A stretch of DNA of 64,000 nt, taken from contig NZ_FQUE01000005.1 in assembly GCF_900128995.1 (NCBI RefSeq), forward strand, positions 1 to 64,000, given 5' to 3'. Every line of letters begins with the position of its first letter. Position 1 is the stretch's first letter. Both the position numbers and the translations under genes were made by a program. The notes beneath the pieces are model-generated. The model did not search any database. It saw nothing but the letters and a program-made list of their open reading frames with translations, and was not told the DNA's origin. Below, piece after piece: positions 1 to 9,561 of the stretch. Source of the DNA: Loktanella atrilutea (GTDB lineage Bacteria; Pseudomonadota; Alphaproteobacteria; Rhodobacterales; Rhodobacteraceae).

Positions 1-447
1 GGCTTTCCGAATGCCGATCTGGCTGCCGTCGGCGGGGAAGAAACCGCCACTGACAGTCCCGACAGCATGGAAAGCCTGCTTGCAGCGGCGCTCGCCCCGC
101 CGGCGACGGAAGACTACGTCGAGCCGCCGCCACCACCGCCGCCGGTCACGACGCAGGATTACATCGATCTGTGGCGCGAACGAATTAGGGCCAATCCGAT
201 GCAGGTGCTGGACGAAATAGGTTTGGTTCCGAGCCCTGGCGGCTATACGATCACGGAAAACCACGACAGCGGGGTCACCCGCGCAGGATTGCAGGCAGGA
301 GATCTGGTGAAATCTGTCAACGGTCAGCCCGTCGGCAACGTCGACAGCGATCGCGCCCTCTATGACGAGGTCGCGAACAGCGGGTTGGCGCGAGTCGAGA
401 TCGAACGCGAAGGCCGGTCCATCGTTTTGTCATTTCCGCTGCAATGA
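1..447 (+). CDS. gspC: Type II secretion protein GspC-like, C-terminal part (5' end outside window)
   Basis: The reading frame is open from the first base, so the start lies upstream. The visible part has a Pro-rich linker (a run of Pro near position 130) and then a PDZ-like C-terminal domain, with YTITENHDSGVTRAGLQAGD leading into LVKSVNGQPVGN. GspC is the inner-membrane protein that links the type II secretion platform to the secretin through its periplasmic region; the PDZ-like domain is characteristic of the family. The stop codon overlaps the gspD start in an ATGA (444-447), so the two are translationally coupled. The membrane anchor and homology region are not visible, so the assignment rests on the domain and on the gspD neighbour. 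Confidence 0.75.
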   Translation, partial: GFPNADLAAVGGEETATDSPDSMESLLAAALAPPATEDYVEPPPPPPPVTTQDYIDLWRERIRANPMQVLDEIGLVPSPGGYTITENHDSGVTRAGLQAGDLVKSVNGQPVGNVDSDRALYDEVANSGLARVEIEREGRSIVLSFPLQ

Positions 448-2390
448 TGCGTCGGGTCATCATCGCGCTCATGGTGCTGCTGATCGCCGCCGCGCCCCTG
501 CGGGCGCAAGACAGCACGTATACGATCAACCTGCGCGACGCCGAGATCGCGGTGCTGGCCGAGCAGGTCACCGACATCACCAAGCGCACCCTGATCCTGG
601 ACCCGGGCCTGACCGGCACGGTCACCGTCGTCTCGGCCGAGGCGCTGGACGCGCCCGGCATCTGGGCGCTGTTCCAGTCGATCCTGCGCTCGCGCGGCTT
701 CGTCGCCGTGCAGGCCGGCACCGTCTGGCAGGTCGTGCCCGAGGCCGAGCAGCGCGCGGTCAGCGGCCCCACCGACACCACCCCCGTCGGCCAGCAGGAC
801 GTGGTGACCGAGATGCTGCGCCTCGACCGGCTGCCCTCGGCCGAGGCGGTGCGCGTGCTGCGGCCGCTCGTCGCCGAAAGCGGCTACCTGGAGGCGGTGG
901 AGGATCCCAACGCGATCATCATCACCGACACCCGCGCCAACGTCGACCGGATCATGCAGATCGCCAACGCCTTCGACGGCGACGCCCAGGTCCGCGCGGA
1001 GGTCATCCGCATCCGCAACGCCGAGGCGGCCTCCATCGGTCAGGCCATCCTCGATGTGCTGGGACCGGCGGGCACCGGTGCCCGGTTGAGTGTCGATGCG
1101 GGCGCCAACGTGCTCTTGGTGCGCGGCACACCGCAGGACATCGAGGAGATCCGCCAGCTTGCCCAGTCCATGGATGTCCGTGCGCCGACGGCCCCTGGCG
1201 CGCAGGTCAGCACCCGCGTCTTCGCCCTGCAATACGGCGATGCCGCGATCATCGCCGAGATCATTCGCGGGACCGTGGGCGATGGAACCAGCATCACCAA
1301 TCCGGTCGCCGCCGACGTCGGGGCCGTCGATCCCAACGCGGTCGATGCGGACGGCAATCCCATCGCCGGATTCTACACGCCGATCACCCGGGATGCGGCG
1401 ACTCCCACCGCGACGATCACACCCTCGGTGGAAACGAATTCCGTCATCGTGCGCGGCACGCAGACGCAACTGGACGAGATCGACCAGCTGATCCACGCGC
1501 TCGACGTGCGGCGGCCCCAGGTGATGATAGAAGCCGCGATCGTCGAGGTCTCGGGCGACGTGGCCGAACGGCTGGGCGCGCAGCTTGGCTTCGGTGTAGC
1601 GCAGGCACGGGGGGCACTGGGGGCCACATCGTTCAGCAACGGCGGCGTGTCCCTGCAGGGCGTCCTTGCCGCGGTGGGGGCACCTGCCTCGGTTGCGCTG
1701 TCGACCGGGGCGACGCTGGCGGCCAGCAACAACGACTTCGGCCTGCTGGTGCAGGCGCTGTCCAATTCGACCCGCGCGCGGCTGCTGTCCACGCCCTCGG
1801 TCTCGACACTCGACAACGAACCGGCGACCATCGTCGTGGGCCAGAACGTGCCGTTCCGCACCGGCAGCTTCGCCACCGACGGCAACACGGTCACGCCCTT
1901 TACCACCATCGAACGGCAGGACGTCGGCATCACCATGAACGTCGTGCCGCGCATCACCGCCGGCGGCGTCGTGCAGCTGGTGATCGAACAGGAAATCTCC
2001 AGCCTGGTGAACGGCAACGTCGAAGGCGCCGCAGATCTGGTGACCAACCGGCGGGTCATCAACACGACCGTGATGGCCGACAACGGCGGGACGGTGGTGC
2101 TGGGCGGGCTGATCACTGACGACCGTCTGAGCAGCGAACAGAAGGTTCCGGGGCTCGGCGACATCCCCGTGGTCGGCAATCTCTTCAAGTCCCGCGACGC
2201 GCGCGAGACGCGCCGCACGCTCTTCGTCTTCCTGCGTCCCACGATCCTGCGCGACCGCCACGACATCGAGGCCGCGAGCGCGAACCGCCTGACGCGCCTG
2301 CGCCAGGCCGACGCCACCGCCGTCCCCCGCACGATCCTGAGACAGCAGGAAGTCCGCCAGCTGCCGCTGGAAATCCAGGGGCTTTACTGA
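444..2390 (+). CDS. gspD: Type II secretion system secretin GspD
   Basis: A 648-residue outer-membrane secretin that would form the multimeric channel for folded exoproteins. It starts with a Sec signal peptide (about residues 1-22, ending near APLRAQ). Repeated N0/N1/N2/N3 ring domains follow to about residue 350, and then the secretin core, which carries the signature VPGLGDIPVVGNLFKS near residue 565. Length matches the family (about 650-700). The start ATG at 444 overlaps the gspC stop. No gspE-gspM genes follow: an IS3-family element begins 47 bp after the stop. The rest of the gsp operon must lie upstream or elsewhere, or has been displaced. Confidence 0.93.
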   Translation: MMRRVIIALMVLLIAAAPLRAQDSTYTINLRDAEIAVLAEQVTDITKRTLILDPGLTGTVTVVSAEALDAPGIWALFQSILRSRGFVAVQAGTVWQVVPEAEQRAVSGPTDTTPVGQQDVVTEMLRLDRLPSAEAVRVLRPLVAESGYLEAVEDPNAIIITDTRANVDRIMQIANAFDGDAQVRAEVIRIRNAEAASIGQAILDVLGPAGTGARLSVDAGANVLLVRGTPQDIEEIRQLAQSMDVRAPTAPGAQVSTRVFALQYGDAAIIAEIIRGTVGDGTSITNPVAADVGAVDPNAVDADGNPIAGFYTPITRDAATPTATITPSVETNSVIVRGTQTQLDEIDQLIHALDVRRPQVMIEAAIVEVSGDVAERLGAQLGFGVAQARGALGATSFSNGGVSLQGVLAAVGAPASVALSTGATLAASNNDFGLLVQALSNSTRARLLSTPSVSTLDNEPATIVVGQNVPFRTGSFATDGNTVTPFTTIERQDVGITMNVVPRITAGGVVQLVIEQEISSLVNGNVEGAADLVTNRRVINTTVMADNGGTVVLGGLITDDRLSSEQKVPGLGDIPVVGNLFKSRDARETRRTLFVFLRPTILRDRHDIEAASANRLTRLRQADATAVPRTILRQQEVRQLPLEIQGLY

Positions 2391-2463: not shown

Positions 2464-2504
2464 CTTTAATGTAGAGTTTGCTTCATCACGAAGGAGCAGA
2501 CGAC

Positions 2505-2768
2505 ATGAGGAAACGCCGCTTCACCGAGGCGCAGATCATTGGGATGATCAAGGAGCAAGAAGCCGGAATGGCGACGGCGGAGGTCTGTCGCCGCCACGGT
2601 CTCAGCCCGGCCACGTTCTACAAGCTCAAGGCCAAGTATGGGGGCATGGACGTGTCCGATGCCCAGAGGCTGAGGGCGCTGGAGTACGAGAATGGCAAGC
2701 TGAAGCGGCTCCTGGCGGAGGCCATGCTCGACAATGTCGTGCTGAAGGATCTCTTGGGAAAGCCCTGA
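2505..2768 (+). CDS. IS3-family transposase OrfA
   Basis: An 87-residue DNA-binding subunit. It begins MRKRRFTEAQIIGMIKEQEA, a homeodomain-like HTH of the transposase_8 type, and ends with a short leucine-zipper-like helix (LRALEYENGKLKRLLAEAML). The ATG at 2505 is preceded by AAGGAG. The stop lies inside the overlap with orfB, which continues in the -1 frame from about 2759, so a fusion OrfAB would normally arise by programmed -1 frameshifting near the GGGAAAG at 2756-2762. OrfA looks intact, but its partner is broken. Confidence 0.88.
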   Translation: MRKRRFTEAQIIGMIKEQEAGMATAEVCRRHGLSPATFYKLKAKYGGMDVSDAQRLRALEYENGKLKRLLAEAMLDNVVLKDLLGKP

Positions 2769-3421
2769 CGACACCGAACGCGCGGCGGGACGCGGTGCTG
2801 AGGGCGGTGCGAGACCATGACATCTCGCAACGCCGGGCCTGCGTTCTGACAGGTCGTCGATCCGAAGACGGTGCGGCGCGAGCGGTCGCCCGACAATCTG
2901 GAGATCCGCACAGCGATGCAGGAAATCGCCGCCGTGCGCCGGCGGTTCGGCTATCGGCGCATCGGGCTGCTGCTGGAGCGCAGGGGCATGCTGATGAACC
3001 CGAAGAAGCTGTATCGGCTCTCCCGCGACGAAGGGCTGTCGGTGCGGCGCAGGCGCGGCCGCAAACGGGCCCGCGGCACGCGCACACCGATGCCCTTGGC
3101 CATAATGCCGAACCAGCGCTGGTCGTTGGACTTCGTGGCGGACACGTTCGGGGCGTCGCGCAAGTTCCGGATCCTGGCGGTGATCGACGATTGCTGCCGC
3201 GAGAACCTGTGTCTGGTCGCCGACACCAGCATCTCGGGCGCGAGGGTGGCCGCGAACTGGATGCGCTGGTCAGGACCTATGGAAAGCCGGCTTGCATCGT
3301 CAGTGACAATGGGACGGAGTTCACCAGCCGGGCCATCCTGAAGTGGGCCGATCAGAACGACGTTGCCTGGCATTACATCGATCCCGGCAAGCCGCAGCAG
3401 AATGCCTTCATCGAAAGCTTC
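2759..3421 (+). pseudogene. IS3 transposase OrfB, 5' portion (two frameshifts, then interrupted)
   Basis: The catalytic DDE integrase subunit. Reading frame 2 gives RRDAVLRAVRDHDISQRRAC up to about 2850. One extra base near GGTCGTCGATCCG moves the sense into frame 3, which runs from TVRRERSPDN through RWSLDFVADTF (first Asp). One missing base near GTGGCCGCGAACTG (about 3245-3260) returns it to frame 2, which gives IVSDNGTEF (second Asp) and QQNAFIESF (the catalytic Glu). The protein is then cut by the inner IS immediately after this Glu-Ser-Phe. The C-terminal piece resumes after 4764. It cannot make a functional transposase. Confidence 0.87.
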
Positions 3422-3428
3422 ATGTATA

Positions 3429-3439
3429 GACGGCCCCGC
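3429..3439 (+). repeat. IS1111-type subterminal inverted repeat, left
   Basis: GACGGCCCCGC is the exact reverse complement of 4750-4760. It lies seven bases inside the junction with IS3 orfB. Confidence 0.8.
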
Positions 3440-3679
3440 GGGCGCAAGTGTTTTGAACGTGACCTTCATCGGCGGGTGCGTTCATGTATTCGGCCTGTTC
3501 GCGCAGCCTCATACATGACTGCTGGCCCTGATGGTGTCCGCGGATCGAGGCCTCATCAACGGGACGCGCTTTGGCGCGCTTAAAGCTCTTCGGGCTTTCT
3601 CGATCCTCAGCTCTGCCGATTTGTCATCACGCTGTTATTGCACTTGTGCCATCTCACTGCCTCTTCGTTTGTCGATCCT
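3440..3679 (-). ncRNA. Candidate bridge RNA region of the IS1111-type element
   Basis: This is the 240-bp noncoding end downstream of the transposase. IS110-family elements use a structured bridge RNA from a noncoding end, with loops that match target and donor DNA; in the IS1111 subgroup this is reported for the end 3' of the CDS. Here CATCAACGG at 3554-3562 exactly matches 4766-4774, the right insertion flank. AAAGCT and GCTTTC lie 20-40 bases away and resemble the left flank GAAAGCTTC. A small GC hairpin (GCGC-GCTTTG-GCGC type) lies between them. Location and matches are seen; the RNA itself is inferred. Confidence 0.35.
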
Positions 3680-4699
3680 TTATGGCTGAGCGCTCCGGAA
3701 TACCTCTCCCGTGGAGAGCATTGCCCATATCGTCCGCGCCAACTTGTTTGCGACCGCGACCGCCACGACCATGGGTCGGCGCCGTTCCAGCAAAGCCTCA
3801 ATCCACGGACCATCTACACGGAAGCGGGCCTTCGGATACCGGACCACGGTGCGGGCTCCCAAGACCAAGAGATGGCGGAGATACCGGTCTCCTTGTTTGG
3901 TGATGCCACCAAGCCTGTGCTTGCCTCCCGACGAGTTTTGTCGCGGCGTCAGTCCAAGCCAGGCAGCAAACTCCCGCCCCGACCGAAACGCCGAAGGGTC
4001 CGGGATGGTCGCTGCAAATGCCGTCGCGGTAATTGATCCTATTCCCGGTATGGTGGTAAGCAAGCGACAGGTCGAATTGGCTTTGTGGATCTCTGCCAAC
4101 CGGGTGTCGATCCCGTCGATCTGCCGGTTCAATGCATCCAGTTGCCCGACGAGAGCATTCAAAGCGAAGTTCGCATCCTCTGGCAGCTCCTGCCGTAGCT
4201 CGTCCAGCTTCTCGACGAGAGCGTCGACCCGGTGCCTACCCTGAGCAACGATAATGCCATACTCGGCCAAATGTGCCCGAAATGCGCAAGCCGCCATCGT
4301 TCTCTGTCGGACCAGAAGCCCTCGGGCTCTGTGCAGCATCAAAAATGCCTGATCCTCACGCGATTTGATCGGGACAAAGCGCATGTTGGGACGGGTCACT
4401 GCTTCACAAATGGCGGCCGCATCAGTGGCGTCGTTCTTCGCCCCCCGCCGCACAAACGGTTTGACATAACCTGGAGGTATGAGGCGCACGTCATGGCCGA
4501 GCTTCTGCAACTGACGGGCCCAGTTGTGGGCAGTCGCACACGCCTCGATGCCGATCAGGCAAGAGGGTAGCGACTCGAAGAAAGGTAGAAGCTCACGACG
4601 CGTTAGCCGCTTGCTGTCGAGCGTTCTGCCGGACGCGTCGGCGACATGCACGTGAAACACGTTCTAGGCCAGATCAAGGCCCACGGTGGCTGGGTTCAT
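3680..4699 (-). pseudogene. IS110/IS1111-family transposase with in-frame amber codon
   Basis: From the ATG at 4697-4699 the protein reads MNPATVGLDLA and then TAG (4664-4666). Relatives have Lys here (LAKNVF), so a single AAG-to-TAG change is likely. The remaining 326 codons are open from GTG 4660 to 3680. The Asp in VGLDLA is the first residue of the RuvC-like DEDD site and is cut off from the rest; the second acidic residue (LIGIEACATAH) and the later Asp pair (KNDATDAAAICEA) are intact. The C-terminal transposase_20 domain (TIPGIGSITA, then NSSGGKHRLGG with the conserved Ser) is intact. An internal GTG start would lack the first catalytic Asp, so the protein is probably inactive without stop-codon readthrough. 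Confidence 0.85.
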
Positions 4700-4749
4700 G
4701 GGAATACTCCTTCTGCAAAGTAGGACCAATATACGGTCCCTGATCAGGA

Positions 4750-4760
4750 GCGGGGCCGTC
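4750..4760 (+). repeat. IS1111-type subterminal inverted repeat, right
   Basis: GCGGGGCCGTC is the exact reverse complement of 3429-3439. It lies close to the transposase start, only about 50 bases from the ATG. Confidence 0.8.
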
Positions 4761-4763
4761 TTC

Positions 4764-5012
4764 CCCATCAACGGCAGCCTGCGCGACGAGCTGCTCAACG
4801 AGGAGATCTTCGACACCCTGGACGACGCGCGCCGGAAGATCGCCCTCTGGCGCTACGACTACAACGCTGTCAGGCCGCACTCCTCACTTGGCAACCTGAC
4901 GCCGCTCGAAGCGCGCCGAACGCTTGCGCTCCCTGATGGCTCAGCGCCCGGCGCGCTTGCCATGAAACCACCCGCCGACTACCAATCTCAAACCGGCAGA
5001 CTCTCGTTATGA
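4764..5012 (+). pseudogene. IS3 transposase OrfB, 3' portion
   Basis: Continues the split integrase: NGSLRDELLNEEIFDTLDDA, then the typical IS3 C-terminus with RYDYNAVRPHSSLGNLTP and APGALA. The stop lies just before the right terminal repeat. Together with 2759-3421 it rebuilds a full-length OrfB. It has no start of its own and is a remnant. Confidence 0.85.
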
Positions 5013-6937: not shown

Positions 6938-7420
6938 ATGCCGGCAGTCACGCAGGAAAAGCACAAGGACGGCGACTTCTTCGTCGATTACGAGGACAAG
7001 GTCTTCGAGGACGTGAAGGCGGAACCGGGCCAGAAGGCGCTGGTCACCTTCCACACCGTCGCCTTCGAGGGGTCGATCGGCCTCGTCAACATGCTCAACG
7101 CGATCCGTCTGGCTCGCAAGGGATTCGAGACGTCGATCCTGCTCTACGGTCCCGGTGTCACGCTGGGCATCCAGCGCGGCTTTCCGACGCTGGGCGACGC
7201 GGCCTTCCCGGGGCACCAGAACTTCGCCGACAACCTCAAGAAGTTCATGGCCGAGGGCAGCAAGATTTACGCCTGCCGCTTCGCCCTGCAGGCACTCTAC
7301 GGCCACGGCGAGGCAGCACTTCTGCCCGGCATCATTCCGATCGCGCCGCAGGACGTGCTGGACCTGAAGCTGCTGCACGTCCGCGACAACGCCGTGATCG
7401 TCGACACCTGGACGCTGTAG
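6938..7420 (+). CDS. nitB: MSMEG_0572/Sll0783 family nitrogen-starvation response protein (NitB-like)
   Basis: A 160-residue cytosolic protein and the first gene of the Nit1C operon. It resembles the MSMEG_0572/Sll0783 family, with a DsrE-like core ([20 protein letters not shown] and [17 protein letters not shown]). The ATG at 6938 is preceded by AGGGGAGCG. The biochemical role is unknown. Members are found almost only next to the Nit1-type nitrilase and are induced by nitrogen limitation or cyanide in studied bacteria. A conserved Cys ([10 protein letters not shown]) is present. Identification rests on sequence recognition plus the diagnostic order of the next six genes. Confidence 0.9.
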
Positions 7421-7475
7421 GCATTCCCCGCCGGGGCCGACGCTGGCCCCGGCATCCCGCTTTCGGAGGACCCCC

Positions 7476-8441
7476 ATGACCCGCACCGTCAAGGCCGCCG
7501 CCGTCCAGATCGCGCCGGACCTCGCCAGCCGCGACAAGACGATGGCCCGCGTGCTCGACGCCATCGACGAGGCGGCGGGCCACGGCGCGGACCTGATCGT
7601 CTTTCCCGAGACCTTCGTGCCGTTCTATCCCTACTTCTCCTTCGTGCTGCCGCCCTGCCAGCAGGGCAAGCCGCACCTGCACCTCTACGAGCAGGCGGTC
7701 ACCGTGCCGTCCGAGGACACCCGCCGCGTCGCCGAACGCTGCGCGCATCACGGTGTCGTCGTGGGGCTGGGGGTCAACGAACGCGACCACGGATCGCTCT
7801 ACAACGCGCAGCTGGTCTTCGACGCAGACGGCACGCTGCTGCTGAAGCGGCGCAAGATCACCCCGACCTATCACGAACGCATGGTCTGGGGTCAGGGCGA
7901 CGGCGCGGGGCTGAAGGTCGTGGACACGCGCGTCGGCCGCGTCGGCGCGCTGGCCTGCTGGGAACACTACAACCCGCTCGCCCGCTACGCGCTGATGACC
8001 CAGCACGAGGAGATCCACGTGGCGCAGTTCCCCGGCTCCCTCGTCGGGCCGATCTTCGCCGAGCAGATCGAGGTGACGATGCGGCATCATGCGCTGGAAT
8101 CGGGCTGCTTCGTCGTCAATGCGACCGGCTGGCTGACCGACGAGCAGATCGAGAGCGTGACGCCCGATCCCGCCCTGCAGAAGGCCCTGCGCGACGGCTG
8201 CATGACCTGCATCGTGACGCCGGAGGGACGCCATGTCGTCCCGCCGCTGACCAGTGGCGAAGGCATCCTCTACGGTGACCTCGACATGGCGCTGGTGACG
8301 AAGCGCAAGCGGATGATGGACTCGGTCGGCCATTACGCGCGGCCCGAACTCCTCTCGCTCAGGCACAACACCGACCTCACGCCGACGCGGCACGTCTCTG
8401 CCGCCGGCCCCGAATTCCAGCCCATTCCCCTGGAGGACTGA
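7476..8441 (+). CDS. nitC: Nit1-type nitrilase (NitC-like)
   Basis: A 321-residue carbon-nitrogen hydrolase that would convert a nitrile to carboxylate and ammonia. The catalytic triad is visible: Glu45 (VFPETFVPF), Lys127 ([12 protein letters not shown]) and Cys161 ([12 protein letters not shown]). The motif after Cys, WEHYNPL, is typical of true nitrilases. In Pseudomonas, the nit1C nitrilase is needed for growth on cyanide or 2-hydroxynitriles; the physiological substrate here is not known. The gene has its own ribosome-binding site (GGAGGA) and is followed one base after its stop by the radical SAM gene. Length is usual for Nit1. Confidence 0.93.
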
Positions 8442-8442
8442 C

Positions 8443-9561
8443 ATGCAGACCGGCGACATCATCAACGACCTGCAGACCCGCGGCATGCGCCTTGTCGATC
8501 CGCGCGCCGGGGCGGACAGCCGGCGCGGCGGCGCGGGGCCGACCGACCACAAGGCCGTCACCATCGGCGGGCTGACCGTCATGGTGCCGGTCCATACCGC
8601 GACGGCCTTCGACTCGCCCTATCTGGTGGAGGCGCCCGACGCCGAGGGCCGCGCGCGGGTGACCAAGGACGGCGCGTTCTTCGCCGACGTGCAGTTCCCG
8701 CAGCGGGCGAAGTTCCTCGACCTCTCCACCGCCGACGGGGTGCCTTACGGCCATATCGCGCAGCTGCATGCCAAGGACGTGCTGGCGACGACGGTGCTGC
8801 AGACCTGCATCCGGTATGAGAGCCGCAAGAAGACCTGCCAGTTCTGTGCCATCGGCCAGAGCCTCGCCGCCGGCCGCACCATCGCCCACAAGTCGCCCGC
8901 GCAACTGGCCGAGGTCGCCCGCGCCGCCGTGCTGCTCGACGGGGTCAGGCACATGGTGATGACGACCGGCACCCCCGCCGGCAAGGATCGCGGCGCGAAG
9001 GTGCTGGCCGACAGCGCCGAGGCGATCCGCGCCGCCGTCGACCTGCCGCTTCAGGCGCAATGCGAGCCGCCCGAGGACGACGCCTGGCACCGCCGGATGA
9101 AGGACGCGGGCATCGACAGCCTCGGCATGCACCTCGAGGTCGTGACGCCGGAGCTGCGCCACCGGATCATGCCGGGCAAGGCGCAGGTCCCGCTAGAGAA
9201 ATACTTCGACAGCTTCGCCGCCGCGGTGGAGGTCTTCGGCTGGGGGCAGGTCTCGACCTATATCCTCGCGGGGCTGGGCGACACGGAGGAGGCGATCCTC
9301 GCGATGTGCGACCGGCTGACGGCGATCGGCGTCTATCCCTTCGTCGTGCCCTTCGTCCCCGTCAGCGGCACGCCGCTGGAAAGTCATCCCGCGCCGTCCT
9401 CGGCTTTCATGCACCGCGTGCTGGCGCCGCTCGCGCAGATGATCGTCGACCGGGGCATGCGGGCCGAGGACATCAAGGCCGGCTGCGGCCGCTGCGGGGC
9501 CTGCTCGGCCCTGTCGGCCTTCGAAAAGTTCAAGCGCCCCGCGCTGGAGCCCGCGTCATGA
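8443..9561 (+). CDS. nitD: MSMEG_0568 family radical SAM protein (NitD-like)
   Basis: A 372-residue protein. A Cys set at residues 122, 132 and 135 (C-x9-C-x2-C in CIRYESRKKTCQFC) is the likely site of the radical SAM iron-sulfur cluster, with spacing that differs from canonical CxxxCxxC. It also has a Cys-rich C-terminus (KAGCGRCGACSA) that could bind another cluster. The family occurs in Nit1C operons; its reaction is not established. The stop overlaps the next start in ATGA (9558-9561), so translation is coupled. The barrel region with QCEPPEDDAWHRRMKDAGID and GMHLEVVTPELR fits a BioB-like fold. Confidence 0.9.
   Translation: MQTGDIINDLQTRGMRLVDPRAGADSRRGGAGPTDHKAVTIGGLTVMVPVHTATAFDSPYLVEAPDAEGRARVTKDGAFFADVQFPQRAKFLDLSTADGVPYGHIAQLHAKDVLATTVLQTCIRYESRKKTCQFCAIGQSLAAGRTIAHKSPAQLAEVARAAVLLDGVRHMVMTTGTPAGKDRGAKVLADSAEAIRAAVDLPLQAQCEPPEDDAWHRRMKDAGIDSLGMHLEVVTPELRHRIMPGKAQVPLEKYFDSFAAAVEVFGWGQVSTYILAGLGDTEEAILAMCDRLTAIGVYPFVVPFVPVSGTPLESHPAPSSAFMHRVLAPLAQMIVDRGMRAEDIKAGCGRCGACSALSAFEKFKRPALEPAS

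What the first reader, a model, noticed from the sequence alone, without database searches (positions are those of the whole stretch)
3440..3679. Candidate bridge RNA with matches to its own insertion flank
The IS1111-type noncoding end contains CATCAACGG (3554-3562), identical to 4766-4774 at the right junction. AAAGCT (near 3582) and GCTTTC (near 3595) resemble the left flank. A GC hairpin lies between the two guide-like parts. This is what a target-binding loop would look like, read directly from DNA.
Basis: partly seen in the sequence, partly recalled or inferred. Interest (0 to 1): 0.6.

Follow-up and report, generated by a model that had tools for sequence, protein, structure and literature searches.

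The report
Bridge RNA aimed at rival transposase
A small jumping gene carries a guide RNA whose two short target-reading segments match the place where it sits, the active-site codons of another jumping gene's enzyme, and most relatives that were checked sit in that same spot; the RNA is of a known kind, the choice of target is the interesting part.

Summary
The minus strand of about 3464-3628 is a predicted bridge RNA (seekRNA) of an IS1111-group element: 1,348 bp inserted, TCA core shared with the target. Over 33 aligned relatives the fold covaries strongly: 28 pairs, 18 with both-sided changes, 96.3% of cells paired. At 34 loci with varied targets both guide slots track the flanks, 0 of 5000 shuffles as good for either. 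Donor guides were also found. Of 37 distinct left junctions of this clade, 34 lie in that motif. A related clade (8 loci) reads one site in IS256/Mutator transposase genes. Precedent in print: ISEc21 targets codons of the second D of the IS3 DDE. This copy is probably inactive: in-frame TAG at codon 12. New member of a known kind, with an instructive target.

The parts
3420..4770 (-). IS1111-group element in IS3 orfB; TCA at 3420-3422 and at 4768-4770, of which the empty site has one; net insertion 1,348 bp
   Evidence: against an empty IS3 orfB copy (L140): 217 of 240 bases identical on the right, 141 of 160 on the left
3680..4699 (-). IS110-family transposase gene; in-frame TAG at 4664-4666 (codon 12), just after the residue taken as the first catalytic Asp of DEDD (recalled)
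   Evidence: 24 other records with the motif have AAG or AAA, some may be the same copy; the 6 TAG records are all this copy; Pfam PF01548 and PF02371; NCBIfam NF033542 334.5 bits, cut-off 140
3464..3628 (-). Predicted bridge RNA; true ends not known
   Evidence: fold z-score -3.87; 96.3% of cells paired, 18 of 28 pairs with both-sided changes, 33 sequences
3542..3606 (-). Target-binding loop with its closing stem (GGATCGAG 3606-3599 with CTCGATCC 3549-3542)
   Evidence: helices 2 and 3: 92.2% and 100% of cells paired, 8 of 9 pairs with both-sided changes
3592..3599 (-).
   Evidence: GAAAACCC and similar in relatives at other targets
3581..3589 (-). Left target guide AGAGCTTTA, reads like the IS3 coding strand GARAGCTTCA; two positions would be rG:dT and rU:dG in this copy
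   Evidence: slot homologous to guides that track the right flank (tnp strand) in relatives: 7.18 of 8 own against 6.01 shuffled
3566..3579 (-). Hairpin between the two target guides
   Evidence: helix 4: 99.2% of cells paired, 3 of 4 pairs with both-sided changes
3554..3563 (-). Right target guide CCCGTTGATG; CCGTTGA matches the flank
   Evidence: 6.09 of 7 own against 4.66 shuffled; 36 of 37 clade junctions read CAACGG or CAATGG
3529..3536 (-). Left donor guide CACCATCA, complementary to the element's left end TGATGG
   Evidence: 5.73 of 7 own against 5.33 shuffled, 0 of 5000; element-internal, so relatedness confounds
3492..3527 (-). Donor-side hairpin GGCC AGC..GCTGC.. GGCC
   Evidence: helices 6 and 7; helix 7 has 4 of 5 pairs with both-sided changes, helix 6 hardly varies
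3482..3490 (-). Right donor guide AATACATGA, like the element's right end TATACATGA
   Evidence: 7.14 of 8 own against 6.14 shuffled, 0 of 5000; same caveat
3428..3439 (-). Subterminal inverted repeat, right end GCGGGGCCGTCT
4750..4761 (-). Subterminal inverted repeat, left end AGACGGCCCCGC
2478..2768 (+). Host IS3-family element, OrfA (HTH_Tnp_1)
2871..5012 (+). Host IS3 OrfB (rve), split by the element at ESF|NG; also shows a frame change near 3251 against L140

Best explanation
3440-3679 is the noncoding right end of an IS1111-group (IS110 family) element and, on the minus strand, encodes its bridge RNA. The RNA folds into a target loop and a donor loop. In the target loop a left guide (AGAGCTTTA) and a right guide (CCCGTTGATG), split by a hairpin, would pair with opposite strands of GARAGCTTCAAYGG; in the donor loop two further guides would pair with the abutted element ends. 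The transposase would then recombine circle and target at the shared TCA core without a target duplication. The target is the ESF|NG codon block of IS3-family OrfB, a protein motif that other bacteria also carry, so a fixed guide finds sites in many genomes. Shown here by sequence: insertion boundaries, fold covariation, guide-flank tracking, recurrence of the target. Inferred from published work on IS621, ISEc11 and others: transcription, processing, RNP assembly, circle formation and strand exchange. This copy is probably no longer active by itself (TAG at codon 12).
For: IS110 transposase; subterminal inverted repeats; empty site; fold z -3.87 and covariation 96.3% against 87.5% shuffled and 26-37% when slid; guide slots against flanks, 34 loci, 0 of 5000 shuffles for each guide; near relatives with other guides at other targets, e.g. 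L135 (GTGATTCA and CTTGAT); 34 of 37 clade junctions in the IS3 motif; L013, an insertion outside IS3 at GAGAACTTCAACGG; top-strand match 5' of bottom-strand match, the order published for IS1111 seekRNAs (PMC11187229 section 9).
Against: No RNA data. No Rfam match: 0 at gathering score in the element, 0 at E up to 1 for 3400-3700. Left guide of this copy pairs imperfectly (6 of 8). In one search, 8 of 34 loci have under 6 of 7 for the right guide and 6 of 34 under 7 of 8 for the left; some best matches are off register. The unanchored version was weak per locus: own 6.47 against 5.86, 13.6% of foreign targets reach 7. Shuffles do not correct for relatedness. The transposase reading frame is interrupted.
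Confidence: 0.93

Rival explanations
1. The matches are chance: a 9-mer and two 6-mers found by eye in a short region.
Against: The same slots follow different flanks in relatives and the loop fold covaries.
Confidence: 0.03
2. The recurring position reflects inheritance: IS1111 plus IS3 moves as one nested unit, inserted once.
For: The IS3-targeting copies form one clade apart from L130, and guide and target hardly vary within it.
Against: The interrupted OrfB sequences differ (PGKPMQNGFVESF, PGKPTDNSYIESF, PGKPQQNAFIESF); the same OrfB as in the window occurs empty in L140 (95% identical C-terminal part); L013 sits outside IS3.
Confidence: 0.03
3. The site is chosen by protein contact or by survivorship (only harmless genes keep insertions), not by RNA.
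For: Insertion in an IS is harmless. The test of synonymous codons (sites that encode ESFNG with Ser TCN rather than AGY) is not significant: 21:1 among inserted against 65:18 among empty sites, Fisher p 0.07.
Against: Insertion is exact to the base, not just within the gene; relatives with other guides have other exact sites; three junctions outside recognisable IS3 keep CAACGG.
Confidence: 0.03

Closest known systems
IS1111-group seekRNAs: ISEc11, ISPa11, ISKpn4, ISPst6 (PMC11187229; sections 8, 9, 12, 13 and passages seen)
   Same: DEDD transposase family, subterminal inverted repeats, noncoding region downstream of tnp, RNA with top-strand match 5' of bottom-strand match
   Different: Target: here IS3 orfB codons for ESFNG; theirs include a REP and attC. 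RNA not measured here.
ISEc21 (IS110 type; same paper, section 12)
   Same: Targets catalytic codons of IS3-family transposases: the second D of DDE
   Different: ISEc21 is IS110 type with the noncoding region upstream and reversed guide order; here the motif is that of the glutamate (recalled as the E of DDE) and the element is IS1111 type
IS621 bridge RNA (PMC11208160, PMC11208158; passages seen)
   Same: Target loop and donor loop with left and right guides; a short core; rG:dT pairs are described there
   Different: IS110 type; RNA at the other end of the element; target REP; core CT, here TCA/TGA. The transposases are distant: 8wt6 E 5.5e-08

Membership tests
IS110 family transposase (DEDD) | Match to the IS110 transposase models above cut-off | tested here: met
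   PF02371 100.3 bits and PF01548 50.2; NF033542 334.5 against cut-off 140; tested from the internal GTG at 4660, downstream of the TAG
IS110 family transposase (DEDD) | Intact reading frame with all four catalytic residues | tested here: not met
   TAG at codon 12 in this copy; 24 other records with the motif have Lys. The element belongs to the family by descent; the copy is probably a pseudogene or an assembly error
IS1111 group | Subterminal inverted repeats | tested here: met
   12 bp AGACGGCCCCGC
IS1111 group | Long noncoding region downstream of tnp | tested here: met
   3440-3679
IS1111 group | Insertion at a specific site without target duplication | tested here: met
   Only the shared TCA; empty site L140
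Bridge RNA / seekRNA | Conserved fold with target and donor loops | tested here: met
Bridge RNA / seekRNA | Guide segments that covary with the target | tested here: met
   (34 loci); within the window's own clade the target is constant so that part cannot be tested there
Bridge RNA / seekRNA | RNA is transcribed and bound by the transposase | not testable with these tools
   no RNA or protein data; no sigma-70-like promoter found in 3400-4800
Rfam families | Match to a curated covariance model | tested here: not met
   whether Rfam 15 holds a bridge RNA model was not checked

The most novel reading that the evidence does not exclude
A lineage of IS1111 elements preys on other insertion sequences by reading a protein motif through RNA: its guides are set to codons that the host transposase cannot change, and carry G or U at three of four degenerate codon positions, so that rG:dT and rU:dG pairs let one guide read several synonymous versions. 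A related clade did the same with a site in IS256/Mutator transposase genes. Guides of this kind would give a mobile element a target that is both harmless to the cell and present in very many genomes.
Probability: 0.3. Interest if true: 0.65.

Novelty: new member of a known kind. Interest (0 to 1): 0.45.

Why it matters
It supplies a compact natural data set in which both target guides, both donor guides and the target of an IS1111-type bridge RNA can be read from sequence, including near relatives whose guides were reset. It extends the published ISEc21 case: an element of the other group, with its guides in the other order, also aims at catalytic codons of IS3 transposases, and a related clade aims at IS256-type transposases. 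If general, parasitism of one insertion sequence on the conserved codons of another would be a recurrent solution to the problem of finding a safe site in any genome.

Tried and rejected
Rejected: GCTTTC (3594-3599) as a guide; it is part of a constant structural segment.

Tried with a weak or negative result: unanchored search of flanks against the whole noncoding end (the script stopped with an error after the left-flank table and the right-flank summary; both summaries show 0 of 2000 shuffles as high, but per locus the median fraction of foreign targets that match as well is 0.51 and 0.24). Codon test of inserted against empty IS3 sites: Ser AGY:TCN 21:1 against 49:13 (family, p 0.10), 16:5 (class, p 0.09), both together 65:18 (p 0.07); Glu and Asn codons do not differ (p 0.16 to 1.0). 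In that test L013 (outside IS3) and L135 (other guide) were left out, and L010 and other junction variants were missed by the pattern. Empty sites were taken only where the DNA codes for ESFNG: 62 distinct in 89 family loci (20 loci without), 21 in 30 class loci (10 without). Rfam. Viral contigs: 0 exact matches to the left-end pattern. One search failed to pair ends for most loci because of a wrong motif; repeated. In one search, L129 and L132 pair a left end with an inverted left end and were not used for targets. In one search rows L129, L131 and L132 have a misread right end and were kept, which lowers the own score.

Rows dropped: of the 80 loci, 33 were used together with the window; left out were the window's own clade (same target), truncated copies, the IS256-site clade, and loci without a usable anchor.

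Not done: tree of the interrupted IS3 genes against the element tree; structure prediction (cap unused); a bridge RNA covariance model search of whole genomes.

Full report
Observation. The shared 9-mer alone is not surprising: 2 in the window, 0.79 expected, 14 of 100 shuffles reach 2. The case rests on what follows.

The element. On the minus strand 3680-4699 is a gene of the IS110 transposase family. It is flanked by a 12 bp subterminal inverted repeat, AGACGGCCCCGC at 4761-4750 and its complement at 3439-3428, and its long noncoding region lies downstream of the gene: the IS1111 layout. So there is no duplication beyond the shared TCA. The DNA of the element occurs once in the genome; a transposase search gives two further, distant relatives at 41% and 37% identity.

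The copy is probably inactive. Codon 12 is TAG; 24 other records with the same motif have AAG or AAA, and the 6 TAG records are all this copy. A start at the GTG at 4660 would lose the residue recalled as the first catalytic aspartate. A sequencing error cannot be excluded. The host IS3 OrfB also shows a frame change near 3251 against L140.

The RNA. Thirty-three sequences (window and 32 relatives) were aligned. The RNAalifold structure has 28 pairs, 18 with at least one compensatory change. Counted against controls: 96.3% of cells paired (shuffled 87.5, sd 0.5; slid by 1-3 columns 26-37%), 89 cells with both-sided change (shuffled 23.7), 0 of 500 shuffles as high in each of five measures; the tool warns that related sequences inflate such counts and that a structure derived from the same alignment is favoured. 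The window RNA alone folds at -62.3 kcal/mol, z -3.87. No Rfam family matches.

The guides. In relatives at other targets the segment just 5' of the central hairpin is complementary to the right flank (transposase strand), and the segment just 3' of it reads like the left flank, for example L033, L030, L036, L060, L061, L064. For 34 loci (33 relatives and the window, chosen for an anchor motif and two intact ends) the own left flank matches the right-guide slot in 6.09 of 7 positions (shuffled 4.66, sd 0.13) and the own right flank matches the left-guide slot in 7.18 of 8 (shuffled 6.01, sd 0.13), 0 of 5000 shuffles as high for either. Misses: 8 of 34 have under 6 of 7, 6 of 34 under 7 of 8, the window's own left guide among them (6 of 8) (recounted). 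Several loci are copies of one element in one genome, so the shuffles are not a clean probability. By this homology the window's guides are AGAGCTTTA (3589-3581) and CCCGTTGATG (3563-3554). The order, top-strand match first, is that published for IS1111 seekRNAs (PMC11187229 section 9). Donor guides CACCATCA and AATACATGA resemble the element's own ends and follow them in relatives (37 distinct rows, 0 of 5000 shuffles, three rows misread and kept); both sides are element-internal, so this is weaker.

The target. In the closest relatives the element sits at one place of IS3-family OrfB..PGKPxxNxFxESF | NGxxRDE... One search lists 32 distinct left junctions; without L135, which has other guides, 28 of 31 lie in this motif and 30 of 31 read CAACGG or CAATGG. 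Six more junctions that the pattern had missed (L010, L114, L115, L117, L120, L121) all lie in it, which gives 34 of 37 and 36 of 37; L124, a two-mismatch pattern hit with a different flank, is not counted. The three others (L013, L020, L087) keep CAACGG; for L020 and L087 the other half is not held, L013 reads GAGAACTTCAACGG in a place where no IS3 reading is seen. That the E of ESF is the catalytic glutamate of IS3 transposases is recalled, not tested; the flanks match the rve models.

Distribution and history. The left-end pattern (up to 2 mismatches) is in 10 of 390 genomes of the order and 2 of 385 of the class, the window's own genome counted in both. In a tree of 68 transposases, 24 IS3-site rows form a clade with support 100/100; a 25th, L130 on a Bosea plasmid, has the same target, 57% identity to the window and an unsure place. 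Members come from Rhodobacterales and Hyphomicrobiales (organism names). The eight IS256-site rows form another clade, 100/100: their flanks read ..GALLLEQNDV | KWAVQR.. and one of them, L053, matches Transposase_mut at E 3.8e-118; the other seven were assigned by the same motif only.

Wobble. At the degenerate codon positions of GAR AGY TTY AAY the guides carry G, C, U (left) or G (right), and G. GAA targets (9 of 23) and AAT targets (8 of 23) are used, with rates like those of empty sites. Papers on IS621 describe rG:dT pairs between guide and target (PMC11208158; PMC11208160; passages seen). The control, avoidance of synonymous TCN serine codons, goes the expected way but is not significant (21:1 against 65:18, p 0.07). 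The wobble idea therefore stays a proposal.

Literature. PMC11187229: outline, passages and sections 8, 9, 12 and 13 seen. [quoted passage not shown] PMC11208160 and PMC11208158: passages seen. Searches of open PubMed Central papers listed no paper whose title or shown abstract describes an IS1111 element aimed at the glutamate codons of IS3 or at IS256 transposases; subscription papers, preprints and the supplements of PMC11187229 were not seen, and ISfinder was not available, so such a report may exist.

Verdict. An ordinary kind of RNA in its family, well supported here by covariation, with an unusual and informative target.

Noticed in passing
L053, L054, L056, L058, L059, L063, L065, L076: A related IS1111 clade sits at one site (..LLEQNDV|KWAVQR..) that in L053 is an IS256/Mutator-type transposase gene; guides differ from those of the window.
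   Followed up: partly
L024-L051 (Caulobacterales and others): Relatives at sites such as AATGTCCGCTNTTG..GGCGCANAGCGGACATT, which look palindromic, like REP elements.
   Followed up: no
window 4664-4666: In-frame TAG in the transposase gene right after the residue taken as its first catalytic Asp.
   Followed up: partly
window 6998-9561: Genes for an MSMEG_0572-family nitrogen starvation protein, a Nit6803-family nitrilase and an MSMEG_0568-family radical SAM protein in a row.
   Followed up: no
window 444-2390: Type II secretion secretin GspD, just upstream of the IS3 element.
   Followed up: no
L129, L132: Left end of the element faces an inverted left end about 1.2-1.3 kb away in the pairing; cause not examined.
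   Followed up: no
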